64,000 bases of DNA from Glaciimonas sp. PAMC28666. Its GTDB lineage: Bacteria > Pseudomonadota > Gammaproteobacteria > Burkholderiales > Burkholderiaceae_D. Below the pieces are notes generated by a model. It searched no databases, had not been told where the DNA came from, and worked only from the letters and a program-made list of their open reading frames with translations. Location of the stretch: assembly GCF_016917355.1 (NCBI RefSeq), contig NZ_CP070304.1, positions 4,836,001-4,900,000 of the forward strand, written 5' to 3'. The translations under genes were made by a program, and so were the position numbers. Positions 15,531-48,792 of the stretch are shown here, in pieces; the first letter of the stretch is position 1; each line of letters starts with the position of its first letter.

Positions 15531-15543
15531 GGACTGCTGGTCG

Positions 15544-17815: not shown

Positions 17816-17863
17816 GCGTTGTTTCCCCGTGGTTGGCTGCTTGGATTGTCTTATTCGCACTTA

Positions 17864-25922: not shown

Positions 25923-26762
25923 CTACCGCTCCACAATCACGCTTCCTCCCCAAAAATAATTTCCCTGCGGATCCTCGTACCAAATCGGATTACCATTGAC
26001 CGGCTCGCCGTTTTTGACTTTCGCGACGTAGGCCAGACTTGCCCCGGCTGCGGCAATGCGGACGATGGCTGCACGCGTGTTTGGCGCGCCTTTTCTGATA
26101 TGCAAACGGGTTGTGCTCACGACTCTACCGGACTGCGGCGGTAGGTGGGGTCCGGGGTGCGAGGATGCAGTCGGAGTTGTTAGCACTTGACCGCCGCATT
26201 CGGTATATTCGACCACGACATCGCGTAACAATTGTTCGTAGCTTCGGCGGCTTTGCATCAAACCGGTTTGCGGGTCGGTTTTGCGCTGTGGATCCAGTAT
26301 GTGATGGCCGACAATGCTGGTTGATGGCGCGAGCTGGAAACGTTGGCAGGCGTACGCCATAAGCCATACATAGCGCGCATAGGCCTGGTCAGCGTCGATA
26401 GCCGTGCCATAACAATATTCGATGCCAATTGCGGCATCGTTGGCGTGATGTCCAAACATCTTTTGATCGGTTTCAGCTGTGTAGAGTACGTGCCAGGCCT
26501 TTTCCTGGCTTGTTCCCATGACAGGAATACATTCAATGATCTGTTTATCGTCGACAAACAAATGCGCCGAGGCGATTGCGCCGGCGACTGGATTGGGATT
26601 GTTGTGATAATAGGCCACGTTCTGGCTAGCTGTCGTGTTAGGGTTACCGGTATCGTGCGCAACGATAAAGCGAACGCCGGGTATCATCGCGTAACCACGG
26701 CGGCGCGCCGATGGCTGTGGCAAATAACGCGGAATAATGTCGTATTTAAGATTGAATGTCAT
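25923..26762 (-). CDS. N-acetylmuramoyl-L-alanine amidase with SH3 domain, eCIS endolysin
   Basis: 279 residues. The amidase_2/PGRP domain covers about residues 25-170, with zinc ligand regions FIVAHDTGNP and VGHHILDPQRKTDPQ, plus HLFVDDKQIIECIP and AIGIEYCYG. A bacterial SH3-like domain occupies about residues 205-279 (VVSTTRLHIRKGAPNTRAA, YFWGGSVIVER) and probably binds cell wall. No signal peptide is present, so the enzyme needs another protein to reach peptidoglycan. The gene just upstream encodes a holin-like membrane protein, and both lie at the 3' end of the eCIS operon. An AGG precedes the ATG. The likely role is host-cell lysis to release particles; wall penetration of the target is an alternative. 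Confidence 0.85.
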   Translation of the reverse strand: MTFNLKYDIIPRYLPQPSARRRGYAMIPGVRFIVAHDTGNPNTTASQNVAYYHNNPNPVAGAIASAHLFVDDKQIIECIPVMGTSQEKAWHVLYTAETDQKMFGHHANDAAIGIEYCYGTAIDADQAYARYVWLMAYACQRFQLAPSTSIVGHHILDPQRKTDPQTGLMQSRRSYEQLLRDVVVEYTECGGQVLTTPTASSHPGPHLPPQSGRVVSTTRLHIRKGAPNTRAAIVRIAAAGASLAYVAKVKNGEPVNGNPIWYEDPQGNYFWGGSVIVER

Positions 26763-26783
26763 GCTTTTGGACCTTTGTCGGAA

Positions 26784-27182
26784 TCAACCCATTGGGGGAA
26801 TCTGCACTTCATCCTTGGCCTGATTTGCGACTTCACTGCCCGACGGGCCGGTGGTACCCCCAGGAAGAAAGCGTTTGGCCCAAGCTTCGATGAAATCTGT
26901 TCCTGCGTAGCCTGCACTGACAACAGCGGCGATCACGCTGTTGCTCAAGTTGGTTGCAGCTCCCTGCGTGTCGCTGACAACCATTGCCAGCGCGCCTGCG
27001 GCAAAACCAATCAATAAGCTGGTGAGGAGACGGCCTCCGTCAAATAAGTCTGATACTTGCTGGTTATTGACAGCAGCCAAATCGCTGATCTTTTTGATGC
27101 CGCCACAAACGCGCACTGTTTGGCCCAACATCCCGAGTAATCCGCCTGATACGACTTGTAGAATCAGGTCTTGTTTGGTCAT
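26784..27182 (-). CDS. Small holin-like membrane protein of the eCIS operon
   Basis: 132 residues. There are three hydrophobic stretches: about residues 6-26 (LILQVVSGGLLGMLGQTVRV), 52-71 (LLTSLLIGFAAGALAMVV) and 82-100 (VIAAVVSAGYAGTDFIEAW). A charged, Gly/Pro-rich tail follows (FLPGGTTGPSG...). Size, helix number and the GYAGTDFIE motif resemble phage holin-type proteins. It is followed after 21 bp by the leaderless amidase gene, the order of phage lysis cassettes. I infer that it opens the inner membrane for the amidase; a structural membrane anchor for the particle is an alternative. Confidence 0.6.
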   Translation of the reverse strand: MTKQDLILQVVSGGLLGMLGQTVRVCGGIKKISDLAAVNNQQVSDLFDGGRLLTSLLIGFAAGALAMVVSDTQGAATNLSNSVIAAVVSAGYAGTDFIEAWAKRFLPGGTTGPSGSEVANQAKDEVQIPPMG

Positions 27183-27245
27183 GGTGCTCTCCGCGATTTA
27201 GGAATGTTTTGTTGAATGTCATAAGATGGTTCAATTGGCACTATG

Positions 27246-28977: not shown

Positions 28978-28981
28978 AAGA

Positions 28982-29848
28982 TTATTTAGGTACCATTGGA
29001 CCGTTAGACACGCTCCAGGTAATCGGCTTTGACGTATCACCGCAGGTAACGACAAAATCACCTGCCCCAGCGATGACGGCGAGACCATCTTTTGGATTGC
29101 CCGTCATGCCACGAATCGAAAAAATCGGAGCTTGTAGTTTTATCGCAGGCTTCGCCAAATCATATGATAGCAACTGGCCTTCACCAAAAAACACCACGCC
29201 GTTGGTACAGTCTCCGCAAATTTTTTCAATAACGATCTGTATTGTCGGCAGGGATTTCCAATCGCAATTGCAATCGGGCCCGCTACGCGCCATGGAAGTT
29301 GCGACACGCTCAGGCATAGGCGCTTGATTATTGCTACCGCCGTCATTCGAAACAACAGGCGCACTCGCAACGCTGGCCGGGACCGGGATACCAATAATCA
29401 CGACACCAGTCTTATTATCGCCAGCGATTCCGTCCACAGTAAAAGGGGGCTTAGTTTTCCATTTCCATGTTGGATTTTCTTCACTTAGATTAATCTGGGC
29501 CATCTGTGAACCTGCGGGCGTGTAATCCTTAGAGTCATCAAGGCCATAGATAGTGATGCCGTTCACTGGATCACCTACCATGCCCAAAATAGTAAACGGC
29601 GCAGGAGGCGCTGTTTTCCATTTTGCCTGCGGGTTACCCAGGCTAGTAAGATATCGCACATCTTTGTCGGAATAAGCTACCACTCCATTGGCGTTATTCC
29701 CACTGATTCCCTTCGGAGTGGCTGCAGTGGTAGTGGAAGGACGCCAAAAGGCGCCAGGCGTTGTTTCTATATTGGATAAAACGCCAAGCTGATCGAGAAC
29801 GGCAAGACCGCCGCTATTACTACCTGTAATTTGCGTAAAGTTACTCAT
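28982..29848 (-). CDS. Six-repeat propeller-like protein, candidate eCIS cargo or binding protein
   Basis: 288 residues, not assigned to a known family. Six copies of a 12-residue core of the form hxG(D/N/S)xxxGhhhh occur at residues 7-18 (ITGSNSGGLAVL), 48-59, 90-101, 141-152, 210-221 and 248-259 (MTGNPKDGLAVI). Most are separated by 38-51 residues and preceded by a Trp-Lys-Pro segment (KWKTAP, WKWKTKPP, DWKSLP). That is the pattern of short beta-propeller blades. The fourth spacer is longer and Asn/Ser/Pro-rich, with a CNCDW cluster. The gene follows a 166-bp gap after the ATPase gene, the largest gap inside the operon, as expected for an exchangeable cargo or receptor-binding module. No toxin motif is visible. 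Confidence 0.6.
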   Translation of the reverse strand: MSNFTQITGSNSGGLAVLDQLGVLSNIETTPGAFWRPSTTTAATPKGISGNNANGVVAYSDKDVRYLTSLGNPQAKWKTAPPAPFTILGMVGDPVNGITIYGLDDSKDYTPAGSQMAQINLSEENPTWKWKTKPPFTVDGIAGDNKTGVVIIGIPVPASVASAPVVSNDGGSNNQAPMPERVATSMARSGPDCNCDWKSLPTIQIVIEKICGDCTNGVVFFGEGQLLSYDLAKPAIKLQAPIFSIRGMTGNPKDGLAVIAGAGDFVVTCGDTSKPITWSVSNGPMVPK

Positions 29849-30014
29849 GTGTGTATCCCTTTATTATTAATGAAAAAGAACTCTTTTTTTTCCTGGTGCG
29901 TAACCCACACACAGAACGTGATAAAGCCAATCATTCAACGCAGTAGATCGGAGCGTATCGTCCGAGCCAAAAAATTTAACTTGTTATCTATATTGTTTTT
30001 AAAAACCTCCCTGG

Positions 30015-31376
30015 TCACAACACTTTTCCATCCTTACGTAACTCACGCTTGCAGCCATTCCTTATGTCAATCTGGCTGATCTTGCTATCCGAATCAGCAC
30101 GCCGCAGCGCATTCAAAGCGGCATAACGCAGCACGTTGATAATCGCGCCACCGGTTAATTCAAACTCTTCGGCGATGCGCTGCAGGTCGACCGAAGCATC
30201 AAGTCTGTCTGGCTGCGAAAATGCATTGCGCCAAAGTTGCAGACGCTCTTCAAGCCGCGGCATGGGAAAATAAATCATCGACTGGAAACGGCGCGCAAAC
30301 GCGTCATCGATATTGGCTTTCAGGTTGCTTGCTAAAATCACCACTCCTGGAAAGTCTTCAATACGCTGCAATAGATACGCAACCTGCGAATTGGCGTGGC
30401 GGTCATTCGAATTAGAGGTTTGAGTGCGCTTACCAAATAGGGCATCGGCTTCGTCGAAGAACAAAATCCAGTCATGGTTTTCTGCCTGATCAAATACGCT
30501 GCCCAGATTTTTTTCGGTTTCACCTATGAATTTTGACACCACCATTGCAAGATCAACCCGGTACACATCCAGACCGGTGGCTTTTCCGAGCAGTGTTGCG
30601 GTCAACGTTTTTCCGGTACCGGGCGGACCGTAAAACAGACTGCGAAAGCCTGGCTTAAGATGTTTGTCAAGCTGCCAGTCTTGCATCAGCGTCGGCCCGT
30701 GTTCTATCCAGGCTTTGATTTCCTCGACTTCTTCACGGATGGTTTGCGCCAGAATCAAGTCGCCCCAACCAAGTTTGCAGGTCAGGCGCTGAGCAGGAAA
30801 ACTATTCGAAAAGGTGGGCTGGAATACACCGCCGCTAGTGAGTAAATCGAGACGTTCGTGTCCTATTTTTAAGGCTTGACCGAACACACTGAGCGAGCGC
30901 GTTGCATCGGTTTCTTCGCTGAGATCCAGCAGTTTGTGGCGCCGAAAAAAATGTTCTGGCGTAAATAACGATTTCAGCGCCAGACGCTGCACCATATCAC
31001 CGCCTGTCAGGATGAATGCACCGGTTTCGATACTGGGCCAGAAGCCGCTATGGCTGCCAGAAATGATACCGCCAAATTCGGTATAGTTACGCCCGGTTAA
31101 TGCATTTTTGATCAAGAAAGGATCGAACAAATCTGGCTGCAAATGTGGGGCTAAAGCTAAAACCAATATTAGGCGCTCATCGAACGACATAGCATGCGTG
31201 AGCAAGGTATCCGCATAAGCGGAGTCGTCAGGAAGCAGCGCTGGCGGTGCAATCTGGCGCACATGTTGGTAATCGCACGTATCGCCGAAATGCAGACGCA
31301 GGCCAACATCAATCAGTTGCCCGGCCCAAGCCAGTTCCCGAGCTAATGTCGCACCATTTTTTTCCAGTTTCATCAT
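30015..31376 (-). CDS. AAA+ ATPase of the eCIS (Afp15/Pvc15-like)
   Basis: 453 residues from an ATG that overlaps the tape-measure stop codon as ATGA; an upstream in-frame start at 31409 would overlap by 37 bp. The C-terminal AAA+ module has Walker A GPPGTGKTLTA, Walker B ILFFDEADALFGKR, sensor/arginine region FARRFQSMIYFPMP, and a helical lid. The N-terminal half is the divergent domain seen in eCIS ATPases. In Afp and PVC this ATPase is needed for assembly or cargo loading and is a hallmark of eCIS loci; T6SS loci carry ClpV instead. It acts in the cytoplasm. Confidence 0.93.
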   Translation of the reverse strand: MMKLEKNGATLARELAWAGQLIDVGLRLHFGDTCDYQHVRQIAPPALLPDDSAYADTLLTHAMSFDERLILVLALAPHLQPDLFDPFLIKNALTGRNYTEFGGIISGSHSGFWPSIETGAFILTGGDMVQRLALKSLFTPEHFFRRHKLLDLSEETDATRSLSVFGQALKIGHERLDLLTSGGVFQPTFSNSFPAQRLTCKLGWGDLILAQTIREEVEEIKAWIEHGPTLMQDWQLDKHLKPGFRSLFYGPPGTGKTLTATLLGKATGLDVYRVDLAMVVSKFIGETEKNLGSVFDQAENHDWILFFDEADALFGKRTQTSNSNDRHANSQVAYLLQRIEDFPGVVILASNLKANIDDAFARRFQSMIYFPMPRLEERLQLWRNAFSQPDRLDASVDLQRIAEEFELTGGAIINVLRYAALNALRRADSDSKISQIDIRNGCKRELRKDGKVL

Positions 31377-34300
31377 GTCCACTTGACCCATAACACCTGC
31401 GACATCCATGACAGGCGTATCGTCGATAAGCCCCAGGGCAAACTACCGAGCAGCATGTCGAAAGGTTTTTTTTCAACCGATAGGGTCCAATCGTCATCGC
31501 CACGGGTCAGCGTGCCGCTACGCGTCAGAAAGGTCTCCTGGAGCGCTTCTATGGATGAATTCTTGAGTTTGTCCCAATTTTGCGTGACGCTGAACAGCAA
31601 TTGGCGAGACAATTCACGCTCTAAATCGGTAACAGGATCGCAGAACGACAAAGGTGCACAGCTTGGCATGCCACAGAGTATTTTTCCCAGCAGCAAGGCA
31701 TGCTCAGCCGGATCTTCATCTCCATTTACCAGAAACTGCAAGAGCTTGACAGCTCGGCTGCTGCTATGGACGTCACGAAATTGCTGACCTTCTAATAGCC
31801 CAAGCGTACGGAAATAATGATCGAAAAAAGGCCACAGCAAAACCATGCCAGCATTTTCAACATAAAACGCTTGCTTGGTTGGTAGCTCCGCCGATGGCTC
31901 TATTACAACCTGCGCGGCCTTCTCCTCAGGAAGCGCCTTGACCCGACGTAGCCATTGGATATTGACTTCTCGTATCGCGTCAAGCAGTATCAGGCGTTCC
32001 GCGGTCGCGTAGCGTTTGCCGGACAGGCTTACTTTCACCGCATCAAGTAAATCCGGCAACTGCAATTGTTCTGCTACGGATAAGCGCTGTAACGATTTGC
32101 GTAAAAGTGGTTTTAAGTTGAAGATGGTGCTGCGTTGGGCATGAATCTGGCGCAATACTTCGTCAGCGAAAATACTGCTGCTTCGCCCTGCACGCAAGCG
32201 CCCCAGACCATCATGCACAGCCGCCATGCAAAGTGTCACGTTCTTGTAGGCATCGGGAAGCAATAACTGCACGATTTTTTCGAGCAACATCGGCGACACG
32301 GCTTCCAGCAACCGTACACGCTCCAGATCACGCCCGATCAATTTCAACAACAGTTGGCGCAGTCGTCCGGGCGAGCCGGTCAAAGCCGCGTTGAACAGGC
32401 TGGTCAGGGTTACAGTACTCCCGGATGTTGATGGCAACCGGCCATATTGCAAAAAATGGCGCAGGACAGAAACACTATCGATAGTCGCAGACGGCCCCAT
32501 TTGCAGGGGATCTTCATCCGGCTCTATGTGCCCCGCGTAATCCGCCTCCGCTGGAATATTGAGTGGAAGTCTCTCCGCGAGATCTGTCATTTCCGCCGTA
32601 TGCGCCAGCATATCCAATAACGGCATAAAACGCGTCTGACTTTCTGCGCCAGCAATACAGACTTCGTGCAACATTGCAATATAGCGCGCATGCTTAAGAC
32701 CAAGTGTGCGCGCACAGGCTTTACTAAGCTCATCCAGAAAACGCCGCGGCGAAGACGCTTGTAGGTCATTTTCCAGTAACAGCCTCACTATTTCCCCGAC
32801 ATGCAATGGCATGGCCCTCGCCTGTTGCATCTGACTTAAATCGGCATGCCTCGACAAACCGGCGGCGGCTTGTAGCAAGGTGTTGATAAAGCCAGCGTAA
32901 CCCAGTGCTGTTCTGTGTAAAAGCCGTAACAATTGGAACGGTGCGACATTTTGTAGCAAACGCTTTACTATCGCTTCCTTCAGCACCGACTGGCGCATCA
33001 ACGGACGCAGGCGAAGCAACGCAGCCGGTAGGTCATCGAACAGCATGCCTTGTCGAAGTAATTGCGCCAGGCCATTGGGCGTCGTGTGAGCAGCGAATGT
33101 CGATGGCAAGCGCCCGTATTCCAGATAATGCAACGCTACCTCCTGCGCCGTGTACCTGTTTGCCAATGCGGTTTCCGGCCCGGCGCTGCACATCTCTGAC
33201 AGCGATTCCCCCGCCAACGTTTGAAAGATCAAGCCCAAACGATGGCCGGATACTACCTGAGGGGCAGCGCTAATGAGTTCCTTTAACAGAACCTGAAAAC
33301 GCAGTCCGTGGCGTGCCGCCAGCTTTTGTATCAGGTTTTTAATAAACGAACGGGTATTAAAATAAGAACCGCGTTCAACCAACAAATAATTTAAAACGAT
33401 TTCCCATAAGCTGCGGGCATAGCGACGGCTATCTTGCTGTATGACGGCTTGGCTTACATGGCGCTGCCGTATATCGGCCACATAGTCATTAATTTGCACG
33501 CCACCGACTGGCTCGAGCAAACACACCAATTGCTGTAAGGCCGGCTCTGTTAGCGCGTCCAGAAGTCGGGTACGCACTGTAGATCGCGCTCCCAGACGAC
33601 GCACCATCGCGCACAAGTGCTGTGGCTGGCGGCGCATAAGGGCGACGATGATGACCGCAACGTTGGTTCCATATGCGCAGGTTTCGGGCAATACGCCATA
33701 CTCAAAAAAAACTTCCAGAGTATGCAGGTCCTGCGCCGCTGCAACTATGGGATAGGTAGCGTTAGATGCAGGGTCGGAAACGATATAAGCTGTGGACGTA
33801 ACTGTGGCCGTACTTGTGGCTTCCCCTGCTCTCGGCTCCGTTTCCTGACGCAGCGCCGACAATATATCTGGCAATGCATAGCGGCGGGACGCTGGCAGGC
33901 TGAGACCGTCAACGCATTGCATCATTTGTTGAAGCAGTTCAGGGTATGCGATCCGATACCGTTGCGCCATGCGCTGCAAGTTGCTGCCGATAAAAGATTT
34001 GGTGTTGAAGTGCGAACCGCGGTCCAATAACAGGTAGTCCAGAACGAATTTCCACAACACTGATTCGAATGTGTCCATAGGCTCACGGACCAGAGGTTGC
34101 TGCTGATGCAGCATTTTCAGGTCTGAGACAAAATTGATAATGATCGCCGCATCTCCTTTCGCCAGCAGCTGGACCAGCGCCACGAGGACCGGCCGCGACA
34201 AACTATGCGCAAGCTTAGAGCGGCGGCTCTCGTAGGAGCCTAAGGTCTGCAGATACGTGGCCAGTGCTTCTGGTATTGTGACGAGCGCATCGCGTACCAA

Positions 34301-34729
34301 ATTATCTGCATTGCCAGCGGTGCTGTTAGTTGCCAAAAAAACGATCAATTCGCTGAGCGCCGGCTCAGATGTCAACACGAACGACGCAGGCGACGACTCG
34401 GCCGCCGAATTCCCTGCAGGATACGGATTGGAAAATGCTGCTATTTTCCGCAGCGCGACGCTCAGCGTCTCAGTTATCTTGAGCGCCAGATCTTTTTCCA
34501 GCGTCTCTGCGTTAACGATACCGAGCTCAAGGACAAGAGAGTCCAGCACAATATCTGGCATTCCGCCTGGTACCGACCCGAGCGCTGCATCAATCGCATC
34601 TTCGAAGCCTTCGTGACAAAATACGCTGACGCGGTCTTGTACCGGATTGGCTTGCGCTGAGGACCCCAACTCCAGTTCAAATAAAAGTTTGTGGATGCGG
34701 GTAGTTGCCGTCGGCAATTTGGCTCCCAT
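31373..34729 (-). CDS. Contractile injection system tape-measure protein (Afp14/Pvc14-like)
   Basis: 1118 residues. It carries the N-terminal pattern of CIS tape-measure proteins (residues 1-60: HKLLFELELGSSAQAN, then IVLDSLVLELG), which fix the tube length and may hold cargo. Internal duplication is clear: LLLDRGSHFNTKSFI and LLVERGSYFNTRSFI lie about 240 residues apart. The segment FEYGVLP/LEYGRLPSTF/LQYGRLPSTSG occurs three times, each opening a roughly 200-residue helical module. The C-terminus (NAGMVLLWPFFDHYFRTLGL) matches the conserved end domain. It starts 3 bp after the Afp12-like gene and overlaps the ATPase gene by 4 bp. Confidence 0.88.
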   Translation of the reverse strand: MGAKLPTATTRIHKLLFELELGSSAQANPVQDRVSVFCHEGFEDAIDAALGSVPGGMPDIVLDSLVLELGIVNAETLEKDLALKITETLSVALRKIAAFSNPYPAGNSAAESSPASFVLTSEPALSELIVFLATNSTAGNADNLVRDALVTIPEALATYLQTLGSYESRRSKLAHSLSRPVLVALVQLLAKGDAAIIINFVSDLKMLHQQQPLVREPMDTFESVLWKFVLDYLLLDRGSHFNTKSFIGSNLQRMAQRYRIAYPELLQQMMQCVDGLSLPASRRYALPDILSALRQETEPRAGEATSTATVTSTAYIVSDPASNATYPIVAAAQDLHTLEVFFEYGVLPETCAYGTNVAVIIVALMRRQPQHLCAMVRRLGARSTVRTRLLDALTEPALQQLVCLLEPVGGVQINDYVADIRQRHVSQAVIQQDSRRYARSLWEIVLNYLLVERGSYFNTRSFIKNLIQKLAARHGLRFQVLLKELISAAPQVVSGHRLGLIFQTLAGESLSEMCSAGPETALANRYTAQEVALHYLEYGRLPSTFAAHTTPNGLAQLLRQGMLFDDLPAALLRLRPLMRQSVLKEAIVKRLLQNVAPFQLLRLLHRTALGYAGFINTLLQAAAGLSRHADLSQMQQARAMPLHVGEIVRLLLENDLQASSPRRFLDELSKACARTLGLKHARYIAMLHEVCIAGAESQTRFMPLLDMLAHTAEMTDLAERLPLNIPAEADYAGHIEPDEDPLQMGPSATIDSVSVLRHFLQYGRLPSTSGSTVTLTSLFNAALTGSPGRLRQLLLKLIGRDLERVRLLEAVSPMLLEKIVQLLLPDAYKNVTLCMAAVHDGLGRLRAGRSSSIFADEVLRQIHAQRSTIFNLKPLLRKSLQRLSVAEQLQLPDLLDAVKVSLSGKRYATAERLILLDAIREVNIQWLRRVKALPEEKAAQVVIEPSAELPTKQAFYVENAGMVLLWPFFDHYFRTLGLLEGQQFRDVHSSSRAVKLLQFLVNGDEDPAEHALLLGKILCGMPSCAPLSFCDPVTDLERELSRQLLFSVTQNWDKLKNSSIEALQETFLTRSGTLTRGDDDWTLSVEKKPFDMLLGSLPWGLSTIRLSWMSQVLWVKWT

Positions 34730-34732
34730 ATG

Positions 34733-38410: not shown

Positions 38411-38452
38411 GCGATCAGGCCGAACATTAAACTAAAAATTCGCATCGATTGT

Positions 38453-42000: not shown

Positions 42001-42789
42001 ATGACGTTCGGTAAAATTATTTAGATCGTTTTGCAAAAACTGCATTAATTGCAAGAGTGCAATCAACAAAGTAGTGTGTGGCGGATGGTCTGATTTATTG
42101 CTGAGACTAAGCTGCAGTTCCTCCTGCGCTACCCCTTGTAATTGCGTCAGTGCAGCATCCACAGCGTTGAGTTGCTTCACCAGCGTATCGTCGATGGTGA
42201 AGCTGCCCTCCCCCGCTGCTGTCGCTGGGGTTAGACGCCACGGTGCCTGCGCATACCATTTCACCGCTGCACCGGTGGCGTCCCTGGCGCGACTATCCCA
42301 TAGCGCAGCCCATTTTTTATTGTTAAGTATAAAATCCAGAACGTTCGCTAAGGCAGGTTGAATCAATGCTTCTAGCGTCGATGCCAGATTGTTGGACATC
42401 GCGTCATTGTCGGCCAGCTGTGTACGCAGATACCAGTCGTCAATACAGCACAACCGTGTATAGATGGCGTCTATCAAATCGCGTTCAGCCGTCTCATCCC
42501 ATACCAGCTGACGTGCCAGGCGATTGGTGTCGAAAAGTGCTTGATCAACTTTGTAATTACACACTTCTGCCAACAAAAAACTGATATCGGCATTAAAAAA
42601 GACACTCCAATCGCCTTGCGGCTGCGCGCCACCGGTTTCATCCGGTCCATAAAAATTCAATAATTTGGAAAACTTTTGTGCAAATGTCAGGAAATGCGCT
42701 ATCGATCGCTCGTCCACTAATACTGACGACGGATCTAGTGCGGGGGTGAAGCGCGCACTTTGAGTGGTACCCCAATCCGGGCGGCGCAT
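39070..42789 (-). CDS. Baseplate J-like eCIS protein (Afp11/Pvc11-like)
   Basis: 1239 residues. The C-terminal half contains a baseplate J/gp6-like region: ESPSVFRSRISERLKHKQRA, then DYEQLVLDAFPAVLQAKC, LQPYISEFVGEIHI and VYVNVVFKADQ, and AWL-type end motif (APWLQNP...HGHDLARFIRTL). The N-terminal half (FNADISFLLAEVCNYKVDQA, LLIALLQLMQFLQNDLNNFT) is the Afp11-specific extension. It forms the inner baseplate wedge that triggers sheath contraction. It overlaps the gp25 stop by one base (TGATG) and the next gene by 4 bp. Confidence 0.9.
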   Translation of the reverse strand: MRRPDWGTTQSARFTPALDPSSVLVDERSIAHFLTFAQKFSKLLNFYGPDETGGAQPQGDWSVFFNADISFLLAEVCNYKVDQALFDTNRLARQLVWDETAERDLIDAIYTRLCCIDDWYLRTQLADNDAMSNNLASTLEALIQPALANVLDFILNNKKWAALWDSRARDATGAAVKWYAQAPWRLTPATAAGEGSFTIDDTLVKQLNAVDAALTQLQGVAQEELQLSLSNKSDHPPHTTLLIALLQLMQFLQNDLNNFTERHLDYYYRSVLQLSERRGQADSVTVMFELAPGFTSWLLPAKSLLMGGKNLVGEDILYATDADIVVQPAKRCSLYRLTLERDNAAPAWVRRALVTLAANTEDGIDAPLKNPALGWPMFSASSQSPSAPFTQDAELGLMITSPVLLLSEGERKVTIKFIIDAANSSAIRTELSRQREQQTANINTLFGEGFKLFVSTAKEWMRVAFEYSQEQSEAQDDIVIDVCFSLGPDQPAMVCNQALAGAPPGPWPCVRLVLNSDASVYQYSSFSNIQLKQVDLNVVVSDLRNLTLSGDLGQIAVDKPFFPFGALGACGAHFDIAHAELGKDNLRDVKISLIWLNLPLAAASFDSYYAYYAPAIILADTFQIQPSVYNGRRWMDQTLQPLYPNQVSTAAITFNNTPLVDATASPRVPCPAPGTLRLALASPQDGFGSAVFPAAFRSQVLLNASATLKKSTGTPVPLPNPPIAPQVKYISCEYGASDSIVIAESERGEEFPKLHYLYPFGSCPIQKDAPTFLLADDGCEGRLYIGLKNLTPPQTLSLHFQIREPSATKHVWKRDDAGNATDESVPKPMAAIRWRYLSSDRWHDFPAYAVQSGTQDFTRSGVVRFALPADLNDNNSVMPSGQFWIEVRAAKEALDTLCVDIVPNAVTATRCLAAQDATTLSLMPASIKALLKKTPAIKKVLQPYASDNGRAAESPSVFRSRISERLKHKQRASQPSDYEQLVLDAFPAVLQAKCITANNSAGFPEGLRIATGTVVIAVASSATPVDNLEALVIEPAPFTLHTLTDIADSLQPYISEFVGEIHICNPVYEPLKVYVNVVFKADQSDGACIKQLNADISDYLAPWLQNPLVPLNIGCGQVHGHDLARFIRTLTYIERISKVWMAQENITEQGNKFVWIAESDSALALTPLSVFMPVALHQIKSGSDLDPQPQTGVGKMTLGENFILGVGGAMPLALVVAPTASPTYVVAFNRMYASTEDKL

Positions 42790-43229
42790 CAGGGCGAGCC
42801 GATCTGGCGCACGTTACTGCCTTCGAGCAGGTAAAACGGATAGACCATGTTGCTACGGGTATTGGTTTGCGGAATAGAGTAGCTCAACGATATGTTGAGC
42901 TGCCCCGAATTGCTCTCATCCTCCTCAACCACAATATCGATGACAAGAATGCGCGGTTCGAAGAATAAGATGGCGCGCTTCAGCAAGTCTTCGATGCGGC
43001 TAAACAATTCGACCCCGATGGTCTCGAATACTTCGTGCTCCAGGGTACATCCGTAGGCGGGTAGCATGGTGCGCTCGCACAACGTCGTTGAAAACAGAAT
43101 GTGCAGGCTTTCGATAATATCTTGCTCACCCTGCACCATTCGCACGCTTCCCTGATTGTGATCAAATTCGGGTGGAAAGCCCCAACCTCGCCCCAGAAAA
43201 CTACCGTCGGAAGCCGCCACTTTATCCAC
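42789..43229 (-). CDS. gp25/GPW-like baseplate protein (Afp9/Pvc9-like)
   Basis: 146 residues. The gp25 fold is shown by GWGFPPEFD, QGEQDIIESLHILFSTTLCE and the conserved R-T-M-L-P-x-x-G (RTMLPAYGCTLE). LLKRAILFFEPRILVIDIVV and a final beta region (NISLSYSIPQTNTRSN) follow. gp25 ties the sheath to the baseplate wedge in phages, T6SS (TssE) and eCIS. Its start overlaps the PAAR gene by 8 bp. Confidence 0.92.
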   Translation of the reverse strand: MDKVAASDGSFLGRGWGFPPEFDHNQGSVRMVQGEQDIIESLHILFSTTLCERTMLPAYGCTLEHEVFETIGVELFSRIEDLLKRAILFFEPRILVIDIVVEEDESNSGQLNISLSYSIPQTNTRSNMVYPFYLLEGSNVRQIGSP

Positions 43230-43521
43230 CTATCATGACGGTCGGAAAACCCAGCACAATGCTGCCGCCATGCGCAGTGGTATCGCCCATTCGTGCGGCT
43301 GGCTTGCCGCCTATCATGACCGTACTCGAACCCATAGCGATGCTATCGGGTGGACCGACGCAGACCAGCATATCGCCGACCACAGCGGCGGGTAGCTTTC
43401 CTATCATAACGGTTGGAACGCTCGGGCCAATCACCGGGCCGCCAACGTGCGGAATCGGTGGTAGTCCCGGTGTCAGCATCGGACAAACGTGCATGTCGGT
43501 AATTCTTGCAGCTGGAGGCAT
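43222..43521 (-). CDS. PAAR-domain spike tip protein (Afp10-like)
   Basis: 99 residues. It has the repetitive PAAR pattern: PAARITDMHVCPM at the start and three copies of TVMIG(G/K) (TVMIGKLPAAVVGDM, TVMIGGKPAARMGDTTAHGG and the final PTVMIGG). PAAR proteins form the sharp metal-binding cone on the spike trimer. No C-terminal toxin extension is present, so this one is a pure tip. It lies between the spike and gp25 genes, as in most eCIS. Confidence 0.92.
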   Translation of the reverse strand: MPPAARITDMHVCPMLTPGLPPIPHVGGPVIGPSVPTVMIGKLPAAVVGDMLVCVGPPDSIAMGSSTVMIGGKPAARMGDTTAHGGSIVLGFPTVMIGG

Positions 43522-43536
43522 GTCGTGGTCTCTATT

Positions 43537-45324
43537 TTAATTAATCATGACCATTGCGCCACGCACCGTGACCTGACCCGATGAGGTTATTTCCGCGCTA
43601 GCCTGACCCTGGCCGGATAAGGCCATCGTCGCTTTGGTTTTAACGTTCATACCCTGCATGTCGAGATCGGCACCGGCCTTGACGGAGATCCCGGTACCTG
43701 ACTGAATATTCACGGCGCCGCTGGCTTTGATACTGATATCACCTGGGCTGTCGAGGGTCACGCCGTCGGAGGTAAAGCTGAGTTTGTTTTTATTTGAATC
43801 GACGATAGTCAGCGTTGTGTCGTCATCATTGAGCGTAATGATATGACCGCCCGGGGTCTCGATGCGCAGGATTTTTTTAACATCGTCCATGCTGATCTTG
43901 AGTTGGCTATTGGTGACAATCGCCTTATTGGTGTTGGGTGCGTCACCCGGATACGGCGGCGTATGCTGGCTGCTGTACAGACTGCCCAGTACGATTGGAT
44001 AGCTGGGATCGTCATTCAGAAAGCCAAGGATGACCTCATCACCCATTTCTGGCACGAAGAAAATACCACCGTTTTTGGTTGCGTACCCGCTTGCCAGCCG
44101 CGCCCAAATACCGTCGCCGTCCACCCCGATCATCGGAACATCGACCAAAATTCGATTTTGACCGTCAGGGTCTTGATCGATTTGCTTGACTTTTGCAATC
44201 TGCAAACCGCGCACGCCTGAAGATAGACCCGCCGCAGGAGGCGGGGCAATATCGTCAACCTGGTCGATGAACCAGGCGTTATCCATGCCAAAACCAACTT
44301 CAGTGCTCCAGTCGCCGCCTTCAATTGTCTGTGTGACGCTAGCGACAAAGGCAGAGCCGTTAAAGCGCGCCCCCAATCCAGCCAATTGCACCATCTGACC
44401 CGGACGTGGTGTGGCGTTACCGCAAAACGTAACGGTGCCGCGCAATCGCGCCAGACGTGATTTAAGCAACTGGGCGTTAGCCCAGACCGCCAATTGTTCG
44501 GCCGTCAATGGAACACAACTTTGCAAGGCGTATGCGGGCAAATCCAGTACGCCGGACAACGTTTTCCCGCTCAAATTCCCTTGCGCGTTGACCGTCGGCT
44601 CGGTCGACGTTCCCTCGGCTAGCGCCTGTTGCGTAAAGTCCCAGGCACTACATTTCACCGACGTTAATTGGGTACACGCATCGATTTCAGCATCAATTTC
44701 AGCCAGCGCATTGCCGTAGCCGATCAGCAATTCGGCTTCGCCGTCCAATTCAGGCGGCCCTACTTTGACTTTTCCATCTTCGACAATCACGATGTGACCA
44801 TTGATTTCAGCGCGGCTTACCAAAAAATCCCAGTCGGTCGCGTAGTAACGCACAACAGCGTCGTGCTGATCGGTAGTGGAACTCACATCGGCACTCAGGC
44901 CGGCATCAGCGATTAAGGTCTGGAATATAGCGCTATCGCTCTTGCCCAGATAGGCGCTCTTGCGGCCCTGGGTCAATTTGAGTGCTTTGTCGTAGCAAGA
45001 AATAACCAGCGAAGACTTGCCGCCACTTCTGATCTTGATAGCGTGTTTAACAACGATGCCTTTAAAAATGCTGGCATCGGTTCCGTGATAGCCCGCCATA
45101 ATCTCGATCTCGGTACCGGGCGCGAAGCTCGCAGTTTCACTAATGGCGAAAGTTTCGTCGGACGAGCTACCATCAAGCAAGGTAATTTTTGCGCTGGGAA
45201 TACGATTGATCTGCTTCTGCACCCGTACCTGAGACACATCATAAATATCCGGCATCCGGTCGCCGTTAATCAAAATTGTAAAGCTGACCAGGTCGCCCTG
45301 ATCGTTTAATGGCGATATTGGCAT
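43537..45324 (-). CDS. VgrG-like central spike protein (Afp8/Pvc8-like)
   Basis: 595 residues. The N-terminal two-thirds is the gp27/phage late-control-D part (VSFTILINGDRMPDIYDVSQ; RYYATDWDFLVSRAEINGHI). The OB-fold gp5-like domain follows at about residues 375-460 (QDPDGQNRILVDVPMIGVDG, GIFFVPEMGDEVILGFLNDD, PIVLGSLYS). The C-terminal beta-helix is made of short repeats (TSDGVTLDSPGDISIKASG, VNIQSGTGISVKAGADLD). Three copies form the spike that carries the PAAR tip. It overlaps the LysM gene by one base (TGATG). Confidence 0.92.
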   Translation of the reverse strand: MPISPLNDQGDLVSFTILINGDRMPDIYDVSQVRVQKQINRIPSAKITLLDGSSSDETFAISETASFAPGTEIEIMAGYHGTDASIFKGIVVKHAIKIRSGGKSSLVISCYDKALKLTQGRKSAYLGKSDSAIFQTLIADAGLSADVSSTTDQHDAVVRYYATDWDFLVSRAEINGHIVIVEDGKVKVGPPELDGEAELLIGYGNALAEIDAEIDACTQLTSVKCSAWDFTQQALAEGTSTEPTVNAQGNLSGKTLSGVLDLPAYALQSCVPLTAEQLAVWANAQLLKSRLARLRGTVTFCGNATPRPGQMVQLAGLGARFNGSAFVASVTQTIEGGDWSTEVGFGMDNAWFIDQVDDIAPPPAAGLSSGVRGLQIAKVKQIDQDPDGQNRILVDVPMIGVDGDGIWARLASGYATKNGGIFFVPEMGDEVILGFLNDDPSYPIVLGSLYSSQHTPPYPGDAPNTNKAIVTNSQLKISMDDVKKILRIETPGGHIITLNDDDTTLTIVDSNKNKLSFTSDGVTLDSPGDISIKASGAVNIQSGTGISVKAGADLDMQGMNVKTKATMALSGQGQASAEITSSGQVTVRGAMVMIN

Positions 45325-46031
45325 CAGGCGGTTCCGAGAGGTGGAAAGACGATAGTGGACCCAACTTCAAGAACGCGGAAATGCGTCATTTTGTTGAATT
45401 GCGCAACCTTAAGGTAATAATCTGGTGATCCATAGATGTTCTCGCACATAAGGGGCAAGGTGTCGCCCGCGGTAACGGTACGTGTATGCGTCAAATCCGG
45501 GGAACTTGAACGTTCCATTTTGACGATAAAATCCGGCGATAAAAATTCTTGAAATTTGACTGTTATTTTGACCCGTAACGGTTGCCCGTTAGGTTTGAAT
45601 AGCGTGTAATCGATATTCATACTTGTGAGCCGACACCGGAAGTTCATGCGCCCCCATACAAGTTTTAGATAATTGGGGCTATGAATCTCTCCGTTATAGG
45701 TATAAATAAGAGTTTTGAATTGTTTGATGGCCAGTGTCAGATCGAACGGCTTTGGCTCGATATCTGGCTTGGTCGGTATCGCGCCGGTAGCATCCATATA
45801 GAAATTAAAGGATATCGTTTCTGGCGAAAGATCCGAAAATCGTGTGGTCTGCCCCGGCTTTTCGCTCGCTTTCAGAGGCAAATAACTGGCCGTGTGGTCG
45901 TGCGTATAGCTCTCTGGATTAATTTGCAGCTCATACGGATTAGTAAGCTTTTGCCCCTCTATCGCAATCAATTTCAGATACGCACTGTCCTTATAGGCGT
46001 AAATTTTTAACTTATTGCGGGAATCAAGCAT
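45324..46031 (-). CDS. LysM-containing tube/baseplate adaptor (Afp7/Pvc7-like)
   Basis: 235 residues. The N-terminal part (LKIYAYKDSAYLKLIAIEGQ, then NPYELQINPESYTHDHTASY) is the CIS tube-initiator pattern. A C-terminal LysM-like domain spans about residues 185-235 (TVTAGDTLPLMCENIYGSP, YYLKVAQFNKM, VGSTIVFPPLG). In Afp and PVC this protein joins the spike hub to the first tube ring. It starts 6 bp after the DUF5908 gene. Confidence 0.9.
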   Translation of the reverse strand: MLDSRNKLKIYAYKDSAYLKLIAIEGQKLTNPYELQINPESYTHDHTASYLPLKASEKPGQTTRFSDLSPETISFNFYMDATGAIPTKPDIEPKPFDLTLAIKQFKTLIYTYNGEIHSPNYLKLVWGRMNFRCRLTSMNIDYTLFKPNGQPLRVKITVKFQEFLSPDFIVKMERSSSPDLTHTRTVTAGDTLPLMCENIYGSPDYYLKVAQFNKMTHFRVLEVGSTIVFPPLGTA

Positions 46032-46037
46032 ATAAAT

Positions 46038-46196
46038 TCATCTCTGAGCGGTGCGATCAAGGAGCTCCTGCGTTTTTTCAACGCACTGCTCTACTATATC
46101 CCTGCGTAGTTGCGCCAATAACAAATCAAGCTGAAGCCCCGCATTGCCATCAGGGACACTCACCCGTATAACTAACTCTCTGATTTCAATTGTCAT
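46038..46196 (-). CDS. DUF5908-like small eCIS protein
   Basis: 52 residues, read directly from the minus strand between the second tube gene and the LysM gene. It starts MTIEIRELVIRVSVPDGNAG and ends in a charged helix (LRRDIVEQCVEKTQELLDRT). The opening I-E-I-(R/K)-E-L-V-I-(R/K) pattern and the gene position match the short DUF5908 proteins found at this place in many eCIS operons; their role is unknown. It starts 37 bp after the tube gene stop and ends 6 bp before the LysM gene. Confidence 0.8.
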   Translation of the reverse strand: MTIEIRELVIRVSVPDGNAGLQLDLLLAQLRRDIVEQCVEKTQELLDRTAQR

Positions 46197-46233
46197 GGCT
46201 TTGTCGGTTCGTATTTATTTCCGGCGCGCACAC

Positions 46234-46791
46234 CTACACCTTCACTCTGGTGAAATATGAATACGCCAATTCCAGCGTCTCCACAGCGATCGCATTGGTA
46301 TCAGCAGCCAACGGTGAAAGACTCCATTTAACTGGCCATGCATTCGTGAATGACCAACTCATCAGAGGATTCTCGCTATGATCGCGCAATATGACCGTGA
46401 CTTCTTTTGGCTTGAGGGCGTTCGCCAAATCGCTTTGCAACGCACCGATACACCAATCGGCCAAAGGGGAGTTAATGGTAAGCAAACCCCGTTTTAAGAT
46501 TAAGTTGTTGTACTTGACACGACCTGGCACGCGATGTGTAAAACGGTTTTCTCCACCTTCAACTATTTCAATCACATTCCGGGTAACATCCAGACCGGTT
46601 ACCTCTGAAAAGCTCCCCTCGAACGCTCCACTCACGTTCGTCAGTGTTACGGCGAAATGGAAGCTGACTGGCGGATAAAAGACTGTCGGTTTAGCTGGGG
46701 TTCGCGGAATGGCCGTTGAAGACTGGGGATTCATAGCTGCCTGCAACTGATTAGCTAAGTCGATCCCTTTATCTATGTTAGCCATTGGCAA
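46234..46791 (-). CDS. Second tube protein (gp19-like, Afp5-type)
   Basis: 185 residues; the ATG two codons later (46785) is an equally good start. The gp19/Hcp-like tube fold is shown by YPPVSFHFAVTLTNVSGAFE, GSFSEVTGLDVTRNVIEIVE, GGENRFTHRVPGR, NLILKRGL and the terminal AVETLELAYSYF. A 45-residue polar N-terminal extension is absent from the first tube protein, and such extended copies usually form the special ring next to the baseplate. It overlaps the first tube gene by up to 14 bp. Confidence 0.9.
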   Translation of the reverse strand: MPMANIDKGIDLANQLQAAMNPQSSTAIPRTPAKPTVFYPPVSFHFAVTLTNVSGAFEGSFSEVTGLDVTRNVIEIVEGGENRFTHRVPGRVKYNNLILKRGLLTINSPLADWCIGALQSDLANALKPKEVTVILRDHSENPLMSWSFTNAWPVKWSLSPLAADTNAIAVETLELAYSYFTRVKV

Positions 46792-47227
46792 TAGTCATTC
46801 CCTCATGCGCCAGTTCAATGGTTTCGACGGCGACTTCATTGCCGTCCGCCTTTAAATCGGTACCAGTGATCTTGGTCGGCCATGCGTTTTCCAAGGTCCA
46901 GACCATGGTAGGCGCACCTGCTTGATCTAACAAAGAAATCACCACGTTGACGCGCTTGATAGTGTTGAGAGAGTTTTGTTTGAACCAAACCCAAAACGCG
47001 TTATCTTTCGCAAACACGCCTTTTTTCAAAGTAACGTTACCGGATTTTTGAATGCCCGGCATTTTTATAGTCGAAAAAGCTTTGGAATCTCCTGCCCGAT
47101 ATTCGATGATCTGAGCTTCTACTTCTAGCCCGGTTACTTCCTGAAATGAGGTTTTCGTGCCATCTATCGTTACCGAAAAAGAAAACTTGGGTAAAGGCCA
47201 TACCGTATTTTGTGCTTCGCCTGCCAT
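46778..47227 (-). CDS. Main inner-tube protein (gp19-like, Afp1-type)
   Basis: 149 residues. It carries PLPKFSFSVTIDGTKTSFQE, VTGLEVEAQIIEYRAGDSKA, MPGIQKSGNVTLKKGVFA and the terminal AVETIELAHEG, the pattern of Hcp/gp19-like tube subunits in eCIS. It is expected to form the stacked hexameric tube that carries cargo. It starts 23 bp after the sheath gene. Confidence 0.93.
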   Translation of the reverse strand: MAGEAQNTVWPLPKFSFSVTIDGTKTSFQEVTGLEVEAQIIEYRAGDSKAFSTIKMPGIQKSGNVTLKKGVFAKDNAFWVWFKQNSLNTIKRVNVVISLLDQAGAPTMVWTLENAWPTKITGTDLKADGNEVAVETIELAHEGMTIANG

Positions 47228-47250
47228 ATTCTGTTCTCCGCGCTATAAAA

Positions 47251-48792
47251 TTAGGATTTTGCCATTTGCTGCTGGAACGTGATCACGATAAATTCCGCAG
47301 GATGGACCAGCGCAACCTTGACCATAATTCGCATATATCCGTCCAAAATATCATTCGCATCCATGGTGCTACCGAGCCCGACATCCACGCTGAAGGCGTC
47401 TTCCGGCTTAGCACCTTGCAAGGCGCCGGCCTTCCATTGACTAGTCAAAAAATTGATGATCATGCTTTTGACGGTGACCCAGGTTTGCGCATTGTTAGCG
47501 GCAAACATATAGGTCTCGGCTGCTATTTTGATCGACTGTTCCAGCATAATCATGGTGCGCCGCACGTTGATATAGCGCCAATCCTGACTGTTACCGTCGA
47601 GCGTTCGCGCACCCCAGATCAACAGACCTCGCCCGGGGAAGGCACGGATAGCATTGATCGCTTTTCCATCCAGCGGAACGTTAAGATCTTCCTGATCATC
47701 ATGGGTAATGTCGAGTACGGGTGATACTGCGCCATAAATTGTGACATTGGCGGGTGCTTTAAAAACACCGTAACCATTATCGGTTCGCGTGTACACCCCG
47801 GCAATCGCTCCGCTCGGAGGCAGTACGTTCAATTTCATCAGAATCTCCGCCATCAAAAGCTGATACGTCGGCGAAACCATATTCAATTGCTGATGATTCG
47901 TCTTTAAATCTTTCGCGGCCTGAGTCGAATCAGTCACTGGCGTTAGAATTTTTGCCAATAAATCCGTTACTTTCTTCAGTTTGGCAGGTTCCCCAAAAAG
48001 TGTTATCGCTTCGGCGTTCAGCACATCAATTAAAGCCGGAAGCGTGTCACTCGTCAATGCACTGTAGTCAACTTCGCTGGCGTCAACAATGCTGGTATTG
48101 AGCCAAGGATAATATGCAACGCAATAGTTAAGAGTGTCTCCATCTCCGGCTATCCGATCACGAAAACCATCAGTCCCGGAGATGACATCGCTAGTTGCGT
48201 CATACGTACGGGCCTGATCACCATGATATACGTCAAAAATGGCGATGCGACTTTGCATTTTTACGCAATGAAGCAACACTTGACCAGACACGTATTGCCA
48301 GTCGTCGAGAGATAATAGAACTGCATCCGGCATAACGACCATCGTCGGCTCTGCTTGTTTTAGAAGGTTGCTCAACGGCGCGAGGCAAAGCGTGTCGTGG
48401 CTAAGGCCTTTTACACCACCGATGGCTGCCAGATCGCCAAACAATCCGACCGAAACGATCCAGCAGGCACCCCCGCCATTTGCGAAAAATATGCATAAAC
48501 TATTATAAAAATAGGATTGCGTTGTCGCATCGACTTCCACTGCGAACGCTGTAGCTGGCGGCACTGCTTTAACGAAACTGAATTTTGTTGTCGGAGGACC
48601 GCCAAACAAGACGGTATATTGCGCTAACGATGTTATCCGCGTAGGAATGCCTTGTAGCGATTGAATACCTCTCAGTGCTTTTTCTGTACAACCAATAAAA
48701 GCAGGCACGGCGGTGGCAACCTCCACTACCGAGTTTGGAAATGCATTTTCTTCAACCACATACACGCCGGGCGTTTTATATTGCGCTGCCAT
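47251..48792 (-). CDS. Contractile tail sheath protein (Afp2-4-like)
   Basis: 513 residues. The N-terminus (YKTPGVYVVEENAFPNSVVE, then VATAVPAFIGCTEKA) and the C-terminus (RIMVKVALVHPAEFIVITFQ) are hallmark sheath strands that interlock neighbouring subunits. The C-terminal sheath domain includes LLIWGARTLDG and INVRRTMIMLEQSI. It is the first gene of the eCIS operon, with GAGAG upstream of the ATG. Only one sheath gene is present, whereas Afp and PVC have three, so a single protein must form the whole sheath. Confidence 0.95.
   Translation of the reverse strand: MAAQYKTPGVYVVEENAFPNSVVEVATAVPAFIGCTEKALRGIQSLQGIPTRITSLAQYTVLFGGPPTTKFSFVKAVPPATAFAVEVDATTQSYFYNSLCIFFANGGGACWIVSVGLFGDLAAIGGVKGLSHDTLCLAPLSNLLKQAEPTMVVMPDAVLLSLDDWQYVSGQVLLHCVKMQSRIAIFDVYHGDQARTYDATSDVISGTDGFRDRIAGDGDTLNYCVAYYPWLNTSIVDASEVDYSALTSDTLPALIDVLNAEAITLFGEPAKLKKVTDLLAKILTPVTDSTQAAKDLKTNHQQLNMVSPTYQLLMAEILMKLNVLPPSGAIAGVYTRTDNGYGVFKAPANVTIYGAVSPVLDITHDDQEDLNVPLDGKAINAIRAFPGRGLLIWGARTLDGNSQDWRYINVRRTMIMLEQSIKIAAETYMFAANNAQTWVTVKSMIINFLTSQWKAGALQGAKPEDAFSVDVGLGSTMDANDILDGYMRIMVKVALVHPAEFIVITFQQQMAKS

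What the first reader, a model, noticed from the sequence alone, without database searches (positions are those of the whole stretch)
25923..48792. Complete extracellular contractile injection system with one sheath gene and its own lysis genes
Sixteen minus-strand genes, most overlapping or spaced by under 45 bp, encode sheath, two tubes, DUF5908, LysM adaptor, VgrG-like spike, PAAR, gp25, Afp11- and Afp12-like baseplate proteins, tape measure, AAA+ ATPase and DUF4255 cap. The ATPase, DUF4255 and tape measure separate it from T6SS. There is one sheath gene instead of the three in Afp/PVC. About 0.7-0.9 kb of gene-free DNA flanks each side, with no phage replication, head or integrase genes.
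Basis: partly seen in the sequence, partly recalled or inferred. Interest (0 to 1): 0.75.

Follow-up and report, generated by a model that had tools for sequence, protein, structure and literature searches.

The report
Injection machine, likely cargo on prophage
This bacterium carries the complete gene set for a phage-tail-like protein syringe with probable cell-bursting genes of its own; the machine is of a known kind, but the genome's only recognisable candidate cargo protein sits 2.1 million bases away inside a resident virus of the bacterium.

Summary
Window 25923-48792 (minus strand) encodes a complete contractile injection machine of the extracellular (eCIS) type: 18 genes, not 16. Sheath, spike and baseplate are nearest 'SalCis' (PDB), Anabaena tCIS and AlgoCIS (subtype Ib), well apart from T6SS. 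One sheath gene is normal for AlgoCIS. Lysis genes in eCIS clusters are already in print (MACs, Afp). New here: (1) a small clade in the host's family has cap and cap adaptor 3' of the ATPase (6 of 6 clusters), against 5' of the sheath in 4 of 4 outgroup clusters where both were seen; the holin-amidase pair was found only in the window and its sister. (2) The window holds no recognisable cargo. The genome's only eCIS_core/DUF4157 protein, with three NSPR leader repeats, lies in the variable slot of an apparently complete P2-like prophage between trpG and trpE. A sister prophage and phages of three congeners have no match to it in that slot. Of 40 sampled cargo loci elsewhere, none lies beside such a phage. 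Phage-delivered cargo is the novel, untested reading.

The parts
47251..48792 (-). contractile sheath, 513 aa, single copy in the cluster
   Evidence: PF17482 3.9e-14; PDB 9r9h_T 452 bits, AlgoCIS and tCIS sheaths next
46778..47227 (-). inner tube 1 (gp19 family)
   Evidence: PF06841 4.7e-47
46234..46791 (-). inner tube 2 (gp19 family); start TTG as listed, a later ATG is possible
   Evidence: PF06841 4.5e-39
46038..46196 (-). DUF5908, 52 aa
   Evidence: PF19265 4.3e-11
45324..46031 (-). CIS tube / LysM-type adaptor
43537..45324 (-). VgrG-like spike
   Evidence: PF04717 2e-19; PDB tCIS All3320 1.6e-161
43222..43521 (-). PAAR tip
   Evidence: PF05488 3.5e-25
42789..43229 (-). gp25-like baseplate wedge
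   Evidence: PF04965 1.2e-19
39070..42789 (-). Afp11/Alg11-like baseplate protein, 1239 aa (All3317 has 1231)
   Evidence: PF04865 4.1e-9; PDB All3317 1.9e-76, AlgoCIS 2.9e-74
38453..39073 (-). tail-fibre-like (Cis13-like) protein, 206 aa
   Evidence: weak match of N-terminus to All3316, E 0.76; matches in 26 of 125 related loci (tblastn E <= 1e-4), between the two baseplate genes where both were seen
34733..38410 (-). Afp12/Alg12-like baseplate protein, 1225 aa
   Evidence: PDB Alg12 1.1e-68, All3315 1.1e-53, SalCis12 4.2e-40, Pvc12 1.2e-16
31373..34729 (-). tape measure protein
   Evidence: PF19268 1.7e-106; no PDB match by sequence
30015..31409 (-). AAA+ ATPase (Afp15/Pvc15-like)
28982..29848 (-). 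288-aa protein with five G[DN]xx[NDTK][GT] motifs, propeller-like by inference only; found only in this clade
   Evidence: no Pfam, NCBIfam or PHROG match; homologues in the same place in 4 relatives, 67-91 bits; motifs
   Evidence: PF14065 2.5e-29; homologues of 189-228 aa
27246..28322 (-). probable cap adaptor (Alg16B-like)
   Evidence: weak PDB match to tCIS All3326, E 0.071; six-sequence profile finds a gene next to the cap in other clusters, E 2.7e-20 to 2.7e-13 in five and 0.0042 in one
26784..27182 (-). holin-like membrane protein
   Evidence: PF05106 0.0079, below cut-off; PHROG holin 7.5e-4; hydrophobic segment 52-70; kept in G040
25923..26762 (-). Amidase_2 endolysin
   Evidence: PF01510 4.4e-19; PHROG endolysin 1.4e-34; 58% identity in G040

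Best explanation
The locus makes a contractile injection particle of the AlgoCIS/tCIS (subtype Ib) kind. Two tube proteins and one sheath protein polymerise on a gp25/Afp11/Afp12 baseplate carrying a VgrG-PAAR spike. The tape measure sets length, and the Pvc16-like cap with a cap adaptor closes the far end. The ATPase is taken to load cargo marked by an N-terminal leader. The holin-like protein and the amidase lyse the producer and release particles. The 206-aa fibre-like protein sits on the baseplate and probably sets target contact. The window carries no recognisable cargo; the one leader plus eCIS_core protein of the genome, in the variable slot of a P2-like prophage at 2.73 Mb, is the best candidate payload. 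Shown here: gene content, order, homology, clade, prophage position. Inferred: assembly, loading in trans, release by lysis, target.
For: Pfam and PDB matches for the machine parts. Sister cluster in another genus with the lysis pair in the same place. Six-member clade with support 100 in the quick ATPase tree. Only one PF13699 protein in the genome, with leader repeats NSPRM, NSPRV, NSPRM, inside a prophage bounded by trpG and trpE. In 392 genomes of the family, own included, 48 of 52 with the spike also have eCIS_core, against 38 of 340 without. For the ATPase, a PVC study's abstract says Pvc15 facilitates loading of leader-bearing payloads (PMC11495950, start of abstract in the listing).
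Against: No expression, particle or loading data. The holin match is below the family cut-off; no spanin was looked for. No Afp13-type fibre was recognised. The 38 of 340 genomes with eCIS_core but no spike match show that the domain also occurs without this machine; it is also reported in T6SS effectors (PMC11297309, passage). The family genomes are related, so the 48 of 52 association is not independent evidence. A congener without the machine has a similar leader plus core protein. The amidase could instead be a particle part.
Confidence: 0.78

Rival explanations
1. The machine stays inside the producer and acts by killing or altering the producing cell, like the cytoplasmic CIS of Streptomyces or the membrane-anchored tCIS of Anabaena; the holin and amidase are then part of a death programme rather than a release programme.
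For: Spike and Afp11-like protein are closest to Anabaena tCIS. The fibre-like gene matches All3316, weakly. No Afp13-type fibre and no local cargo were recognised.
Against: The Cis13-like gene is also found in Bacteroidota clusters. A holin plus endolysin is what MACs are said to use for release (PMC8910223, passage). A cargo-like protein exists in the genome.
Confidence: 0.15
2. The cluster is a decaying remnant that no longer makes particles.
For: The four congeners searched lack the spike. A relative, G203, shows a real remnant of sheath, spike and PAAR only.
Against: All 18 frames are open, with tight spacing, and the core parts are present, whereas the remnant has lost most.
Confidence: 0.05
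3. The prophage-borne eCIS_core protein has nothing to do with this machine: it is a phage gene or a passenger, and the eCIS has an unrecognised cargo (for example the 288-aa repeat protein).
For: Cargo without DUF4157 is common (36% of known eCIS toxins carry it; PMC11297309, passage). A congener without the machine, G003, has a similar leader plus eCIS_core protein. The slot in related phages holds unrelated genes.
Against: Leader and domain are those of eCIS cargo. It is the only such protein found in the genome. The 288-aa protein is conserved in place in 4 clade members that also have eCIS_core proteins near the cluster, so it looks like a machine-linked gene.
Confidence: 0.35
4. It is a type VI secretion system or an intact contractile prophage.
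For: VgrG/PAAR/gp25 parts are shared.
Against: eCIS-type tape measure, cap, DUF5908 and ATPase. No head, terminase, replication or integrase match in the cluster or in the 12 flanking ORFs scanned. Spike 542 bits to tCIS against 45 to a plainly named T6SS VgrG. The genome's two P2-like prophages have a different, 403-aa sheath.
Confidence: 0.02

Closest known systems
AlgoCIS (Algoriphagus machipongonensis, subtype Ib)
   Same: single sheath, spike, Alg11/Alg12 baseplate, cap plus likely cap adaptor (PMC8894135, passages)
   Different: here cap and adaptor lie 3' of the ATPase; own holin-like and amidase genes; cargo not in the window, whereas the AlgoCIS cluster encodes Cgo1 and Cgo2 (passage)
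tCIS of Anabaena (All3315-All3326)
   Same: best spike and Afp11-like match; weak match of the fibre-like gene and of the probable cap adaptor
   Different: tCIS is anchored in thylakoids by baseplate and fibre extensions (PMC8894136, passages); no thylakoids are expected in this host (inference); lysis pair present here
SalCis (PDB 9r9h, 9rce)
   Same: closest solved sheath, 452 bits; Afp11-, Afp12-like and spike matches
   Different: no paper found, so organism and biology were not compared
Afp / PVC (subtype Ia)
   Same: cap after the ATPase (Afp gene order recalled) and a lysis cassette linked to Afp (PMC12961389, passage)
   Different: three sheath genes, an Afp13/Pvc13 fibre, toxins at the 3' end (partly recalled); sheath and spike clearly more distant
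MACs (Pseudoalteromonas luteoviolacea)
   Same: eCIS with endolysin/holin in the cluster (PMC8910223, passage)
   Different: MAC sequences were not compared here; arrays and long fibres not assessed

Membership tests
eCIS (extracellular contractile injection system) | sheath, tube, spike/PAAR, gp25 and Afp11/12 baseplate in one cluster | tested here: met
eCIS (extracellular contractile injection system) | AAA+ ATPase, CIS tape measure and Pvc16-type cap | tested here: met
eCIS (extracellular contractile injection system) | target-binding tail fibre | tested here: inconclusive
   206-aa Cis13-like protein, E 0.76 to All3316, positional homologues; no Afp13-type fibre seen; structure prediction failed
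eCIS (extracellular contractile injection system) | DUF4157-type cargo near the cluster (usual, not universal) | tested here: not met
   none in the window; one protein 2.1 Mb away
eCIS (extracellular contractile injection system) | free particles released from the cell | not testable with these tools
   needs microscopy of lysates or supernatants
subtype Ib (AlgoCIS) | sheath and spike closer to AlgoCIS than to Afp/PVC | tested here: met
subtype Ib (AlgoCIS) | cap adaptor (Alg16B) | tested here: met
   weak by single sequence and only to All3326 (E 0.071); clear homologues by profile next to the cap in other clusters; identity with Alg16B itself is inferred
subtype Ib (AlgoCIS) | spike cage from an Alg11 extension | tested here: inconclusive
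   long Afp11-like protein (1239 aa) aligning to All3317 and the AlgoCIS protein; no structure
T6SS | membrane complex and ClpV unfoldase genes with the sheath | tested here: not met
   none among the 18 genes or the 12 flanking ORFs scanned; the genome elsewhere was not searched for them
intact contractile prophage or tailocin | head, terminase, replication or integrase genes, or phage-type sheath | tested here: not met
P2-like prophage carrying the cargo (prophage A) | portal, terminase, capsid, tail, gpA replication and integrase genes in one element | tested here: met
   Pfam: GPD, sheath, GPA, integrase, M15 peptidase (the repressor-like HTH is just below cut-off); portal, terminase and capsid genes were read by eye from recalled P2 order; no clear attachment repeat

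The most novel reading that the evidence does not exclude
A temperate P2-like phage acts as the carrier of an eCIS payload: the machine is fixed in the chromosome, while its cargo is a moron in the variable slot of the phage. Lysogeny could then arm, re-arm or swap the payload of a resident injection machine (lysogenic conversion of an eCIS), and prophage induction could couple cargo supply to cell lysis.
Probability: 0.35. Interest if true: 0.75.

Novelty: new variant of a known kind. Interest (0 to 1): 0.45.

Why it matters
How eCIS cargo spreads between strains is poorly known (my reading); one study reports 88% of known eCIS toxins within ten genes of the operon (PMC11297309, passage). Here a machine without local cargo, with its own probable lysis pair, has its only recognisable payload on a temperate phage. 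If the pairing is real, payload exchange by lysogeny becomes directly testable in one strain, by curing the prophage and looking inside the particles.

Tried and rejected
Single sheath as a special feature: rejected, AlgoCIS has one (PMC8894135, passages). Lysis genes as a novelty: rejected.

The 288-aa gene as a chance insert or cargo: at first it looked inserted, because the sister G040 lacks it. A wider sample showed homologues in the same place in 4 relatives, so it is a clade gene.

A clade-specific cargo leader: tried and dropped. Regex counts gave 2 of 47 eCIS_core ORFs and 1 of 905 other ORFs with at least two motifs, or 3 of 47 with a second pattern. Reading the leaders shows a looser shared pattern across the family, so no match between leader and machine clade is claimed.

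An IMG/VR contig with a cargo relative (L241, the only relative among 70 pattern matches) looked like phage carriage, but its genes (GPD, OB spike, baseplate-wedge-like, Tail_P2_I) read like another contractile injection system, so it is not counted.

Structure prediction of the 288-aa and 206-aa proteins without an alignment failed (mean pLDDT 30.4 and 31.1), so no fold search was made. Promoter and terminator scans gave no more than shuffles. The C-terminal part of the cargo has no Pfam match and no useful PDB match. Flank comparison in congeners was inconclusive: the flanking genes are rearranged. A search of ten named genomes for the amidase was empty, without a positive control. The host's name could not be reached; its order is probably Burkholderiales, because G073, labelled same order, groups with Nitrosomonas in the quick ATPase tree. 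The careful tree did not finish.
Full report
OBSERVATION. The window is G000:C1:4836001-4900000 of a 5.23-Mb single-contig genome. The minus-strand frames exist as described. Pfam identifies sheath, two tubes, CIS_tube, spike OB domain, PAAR, gp25, Baseplate_J, CIS_TMP, AAA, Pvc16_N, DUF5908 and Amidase_2. I count 18 genes. Two large baseplate genes are Afp11/Alg11-like (39070-42789) and Afp12/Alg12-like (34733-38410). The 12 flanking ORFs scanned hold no phage gene: a permease-GGDEF-EAL protein and a trehalase, and ten others including pilin-like, RibD-like and cyanate lyase genes (two of the ten have no match). The other ORFs of the window, including all of 1-17860, were not scanned.

WHAT THE MACHINE IS. 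By single-sequence comparison with the PDB the sheath is closest to 9r9h_T (452 bits; entry 9rce of the same set names SalCis12), then AlgoCIS (325) and Anabaena tCIS (308), with Pvc3 (186) and Afp3 (170) lower and pyocin or T4-like sheaths at 27 bits or less. The spike gives All3320 of tCIS 542 bits, the SalCis chain 470, AlgoCIS 462, Pvc8 141, one chain of mixed name (9gtr_q) 72 and the best chain named plainly as T6SS VgrG 45. Baseplate proteins behave alike. Against phages, 87 records match the sheath, none over 80% of its length. The AlgoCIS paper calls that system subtype Ib, with one sheath protein, cap, cap adaptor and spike cage (PMC8894135, passages), so I place the machine with it. 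The 358-aa protein matches tCIS All3326 weakly (E 0.071). A profile of six relatives finds the same gene next to the cap in other clusters (L032, L029, L094, L040, L037: E 2.7e-20 to 2.7e-13; L095 E 0.0042). I read it as the cap adaptor. The 206-aa protein matches the first 43 residues of All3316 weakly (E 0.76) and has matches in 26 of 125 related loci. The tCIS paper describes a tail-fibre-like Cis13 (passages); that All3316 is Cis13 is my inference.

COMPARATIVE ANATOMY. CIS_TMP occurs in 9 of 99 relatives searched besides the own genome (8 above cut-off), and in none of the 4 congeners. The spike finds 52 of 392 genomes of the family at E <= 1e-30, the own genome included and none of the 4 congeners; two of the 52 (G225, G318) are weak or partial. 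The seven others with 55-68% spike identity are G040, G203, G391, G210, G258, G400 and G269. G203 is a remnant (sheath, spike, PAAR only) and G391 a short contig. In the remaining six members including the window, cap and cap adaptor lie 3' of the ATPase (the G040 cluster is split over two contigs within the tape measure gene). In 4 of 4 other relatives of the family or order where both genes were seen (G087, G059, G019, G007) they lie just 5' of the sheath. In the quick ATPase tree of 92 rows the six form one group with support 100, the window next to G040 with 94; one of the six, G210, was flagged for unusual composition, and the careful search was not finished. The 288-aa repeat protein is present in the same place in G210, G258, G400 and G269 (25-28% identity, 67-91 bits) but was not found in G040. 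The 206-aa gene is present in G040 (46% identity) and was not detected in those four (one-sequence profile, E <= 0.01). The holin-amidase pair was found only in the window and G040: by tblastn in 1 of 125 loci, which include the 80 named ATPase neighbourhoods with up to 10 kb on each side, and by two-sequence profiles in no locus but G040's, G210, G258, G400 and G269 included. Other kinds of lysis gene were not looked for, and such profiles may miss distant relatives. A search of ten named genomes for the amidase gave nothing (0 of 10, no positive control).

LYSIS GENES ARE NOT NEW. [quoted passage not shown] Another describes a lysis cassette upstream of Afp (PMC12961389, passage). The holin call here is weak alone; conservation beside the amidase in a second genus (48% and 58%) makes it credible.

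THE CARGO. No frame of 100 codons or more in the window carries two leader motifs or the DUF4157 HExxH motif (an earlier scan gave only one 99-codon frame on the opposite strand inside a baseplate gene). In the whole genome PF13699 (eCIS_core, DUF4157) rings once, at C1:2733494-2733691 in a 641-aa ORF, and that protein has no second relative in the genome. It bears NSPRM, NSPRV, NSPRM repeats and then HEAWHVVQQ, the layout of eCIS cargo. The papers seen tie DUF4157 to eCIS cargo and place 88% of known toxins within ten genes of the operon (PMC11297309, passages; PMC8213781, passages). In the family, 48 of 52 spike-positive genomes also have eCIS_core, against 38 of 340 spike-negative ones (Fisher p 5e-33, without correction for relatedness; two of the four exceptions are the weak or partial spike matches, the other two the remnant G203 and the incomplete G391).

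THE PROPHAGE. The ORF lies inside prophage A, between trpG (2705648-2706211, by eye) and trpE (2746062 on, Pfam). The element has, by eye, portal-, terminase- and capsid-like genes; by Pfam an M15 peptidase, sheath 2724428-2725639, gpD 2730671-2731894, gpA 2740187-2742019, integrase 2744667-2745887 and, just below cut-off, a repressor-like HTH gene. The cargo is 2732216-2734141 on the minus strand, between gpD and the HTH gene. No clear attachment repeat was found: no shared word of 14 bases in the wider stretch, at most 9 bases near the ends. A second prophage B (about 4.588-4.622 Mb) matches A in seven blocks of 67.9-98.7% identity. The cargo lies in 3.4 kb of A (2731609-2735028) with no match in B, between two matched blocks, where B has 1.4 kb. 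Related phages of G003, G001 and G002 have other ORFs after gpD, none matching the cargo; what those are was read by eye only. This is the behaviour of a variable moron slot. As a control, 39 eCIS_core loci of other genomes of the family, on other contigs than the genome's spike, far from it, or in genomes without a spike, plus the congener's locus (40 in all, up to about 9 kb each side, some cut by contig ends), were compared with 17 proteins of prophage A: 0 of 40 match any. I picked the 39 from the listed rows with 39.7-49.2 bits; that list was itself capped and not all its rows were used. Other phage types near those loci were not looked for. The cargo matches no record of 50,697 phages and 8 plasmid records. 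So carriage by this kind of phage looks rare. DUF4157 together with prophage gives 12 papers and eCIS, effector, prophage with P2-like two. I searched three papers for the word prophage (at most 12 passages shown each) and saw no report of a phage-borne cargo; the others were seen as listings or for other terms, so absence from print is not shown.

MECHANISM AND LIMITS. Shown: gene content, order, relationships, clade, the lone cargo-like gene and its place. Inferred: particle assembly, cargo loading in trans through the ATPase, lysis by holin and amidase, target. The machine may instead act inside the producer like the Streptomyces CIS or tCIS (rival, 0.15). The prophage protein may be unrelated to the machine (0.35); a congener without the machine has a similar protein, which shows that such proteins persist or move without it.

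VERDICT. A complete machine of a known kind, in a new small variant with a different gene order and its own probable lysis pair. The observation worth following is the candidate payload on a temperate phage.

Noticed in passing
G000:C1:2732216-2734141 (L199), outside the window: The only eCIS_core (DUF4157) protein found in the genome, with three NSPR leader repeats, in the variable slot of a P2-like prophage inserted between trpG and trpE.
   Followed up: yes
G000:C1:4588000-4622000 (L201, L205, L206), outside the window: A second P2-like prophage whose structural genes match the first at up to 98.7% DNA identity but whose slot after gpD holds other ORFs, one with a P-loop that reads like a zeta-type kinase (by eye).
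   Followed up: partly
L187/L188 (G203:C31:57158-60958): A remnant of the same eCIS clade: only sheath, spike and PAAR side by side, the rest not found nearby.
   Followed up: no
L239/L240 (G003:C1:1550572-1552557): A congener without the machine keeps a leader plus eCIS_core protein (75% identity in the core domain) beside a transposase-like ORF (by eye), with no match to prophage A within about 9 kb.
   Followed up: partly
L241 (IMGVR_UViG_3300025233_000029): A contig filed as viral carries baseplate genes and an eCIS_core protein; it is probably another contractile injection system rather than a phage.
   Followed up: partly
L290 (G003:C1:3139804-3140192) and G000:C1:2734459-2734538: Repeats of the 3' end of gpD lie on the far side of the moron slot (88% and 73% identity), which could let slot contents be exchanged by recombination.
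   Followed up: no
window 21554-25246: One long ORF joins an amino-acid permease with HAMP, PAS, GGDEF and EAL domains, which looks like an unusual fusion.
   Followed up: no
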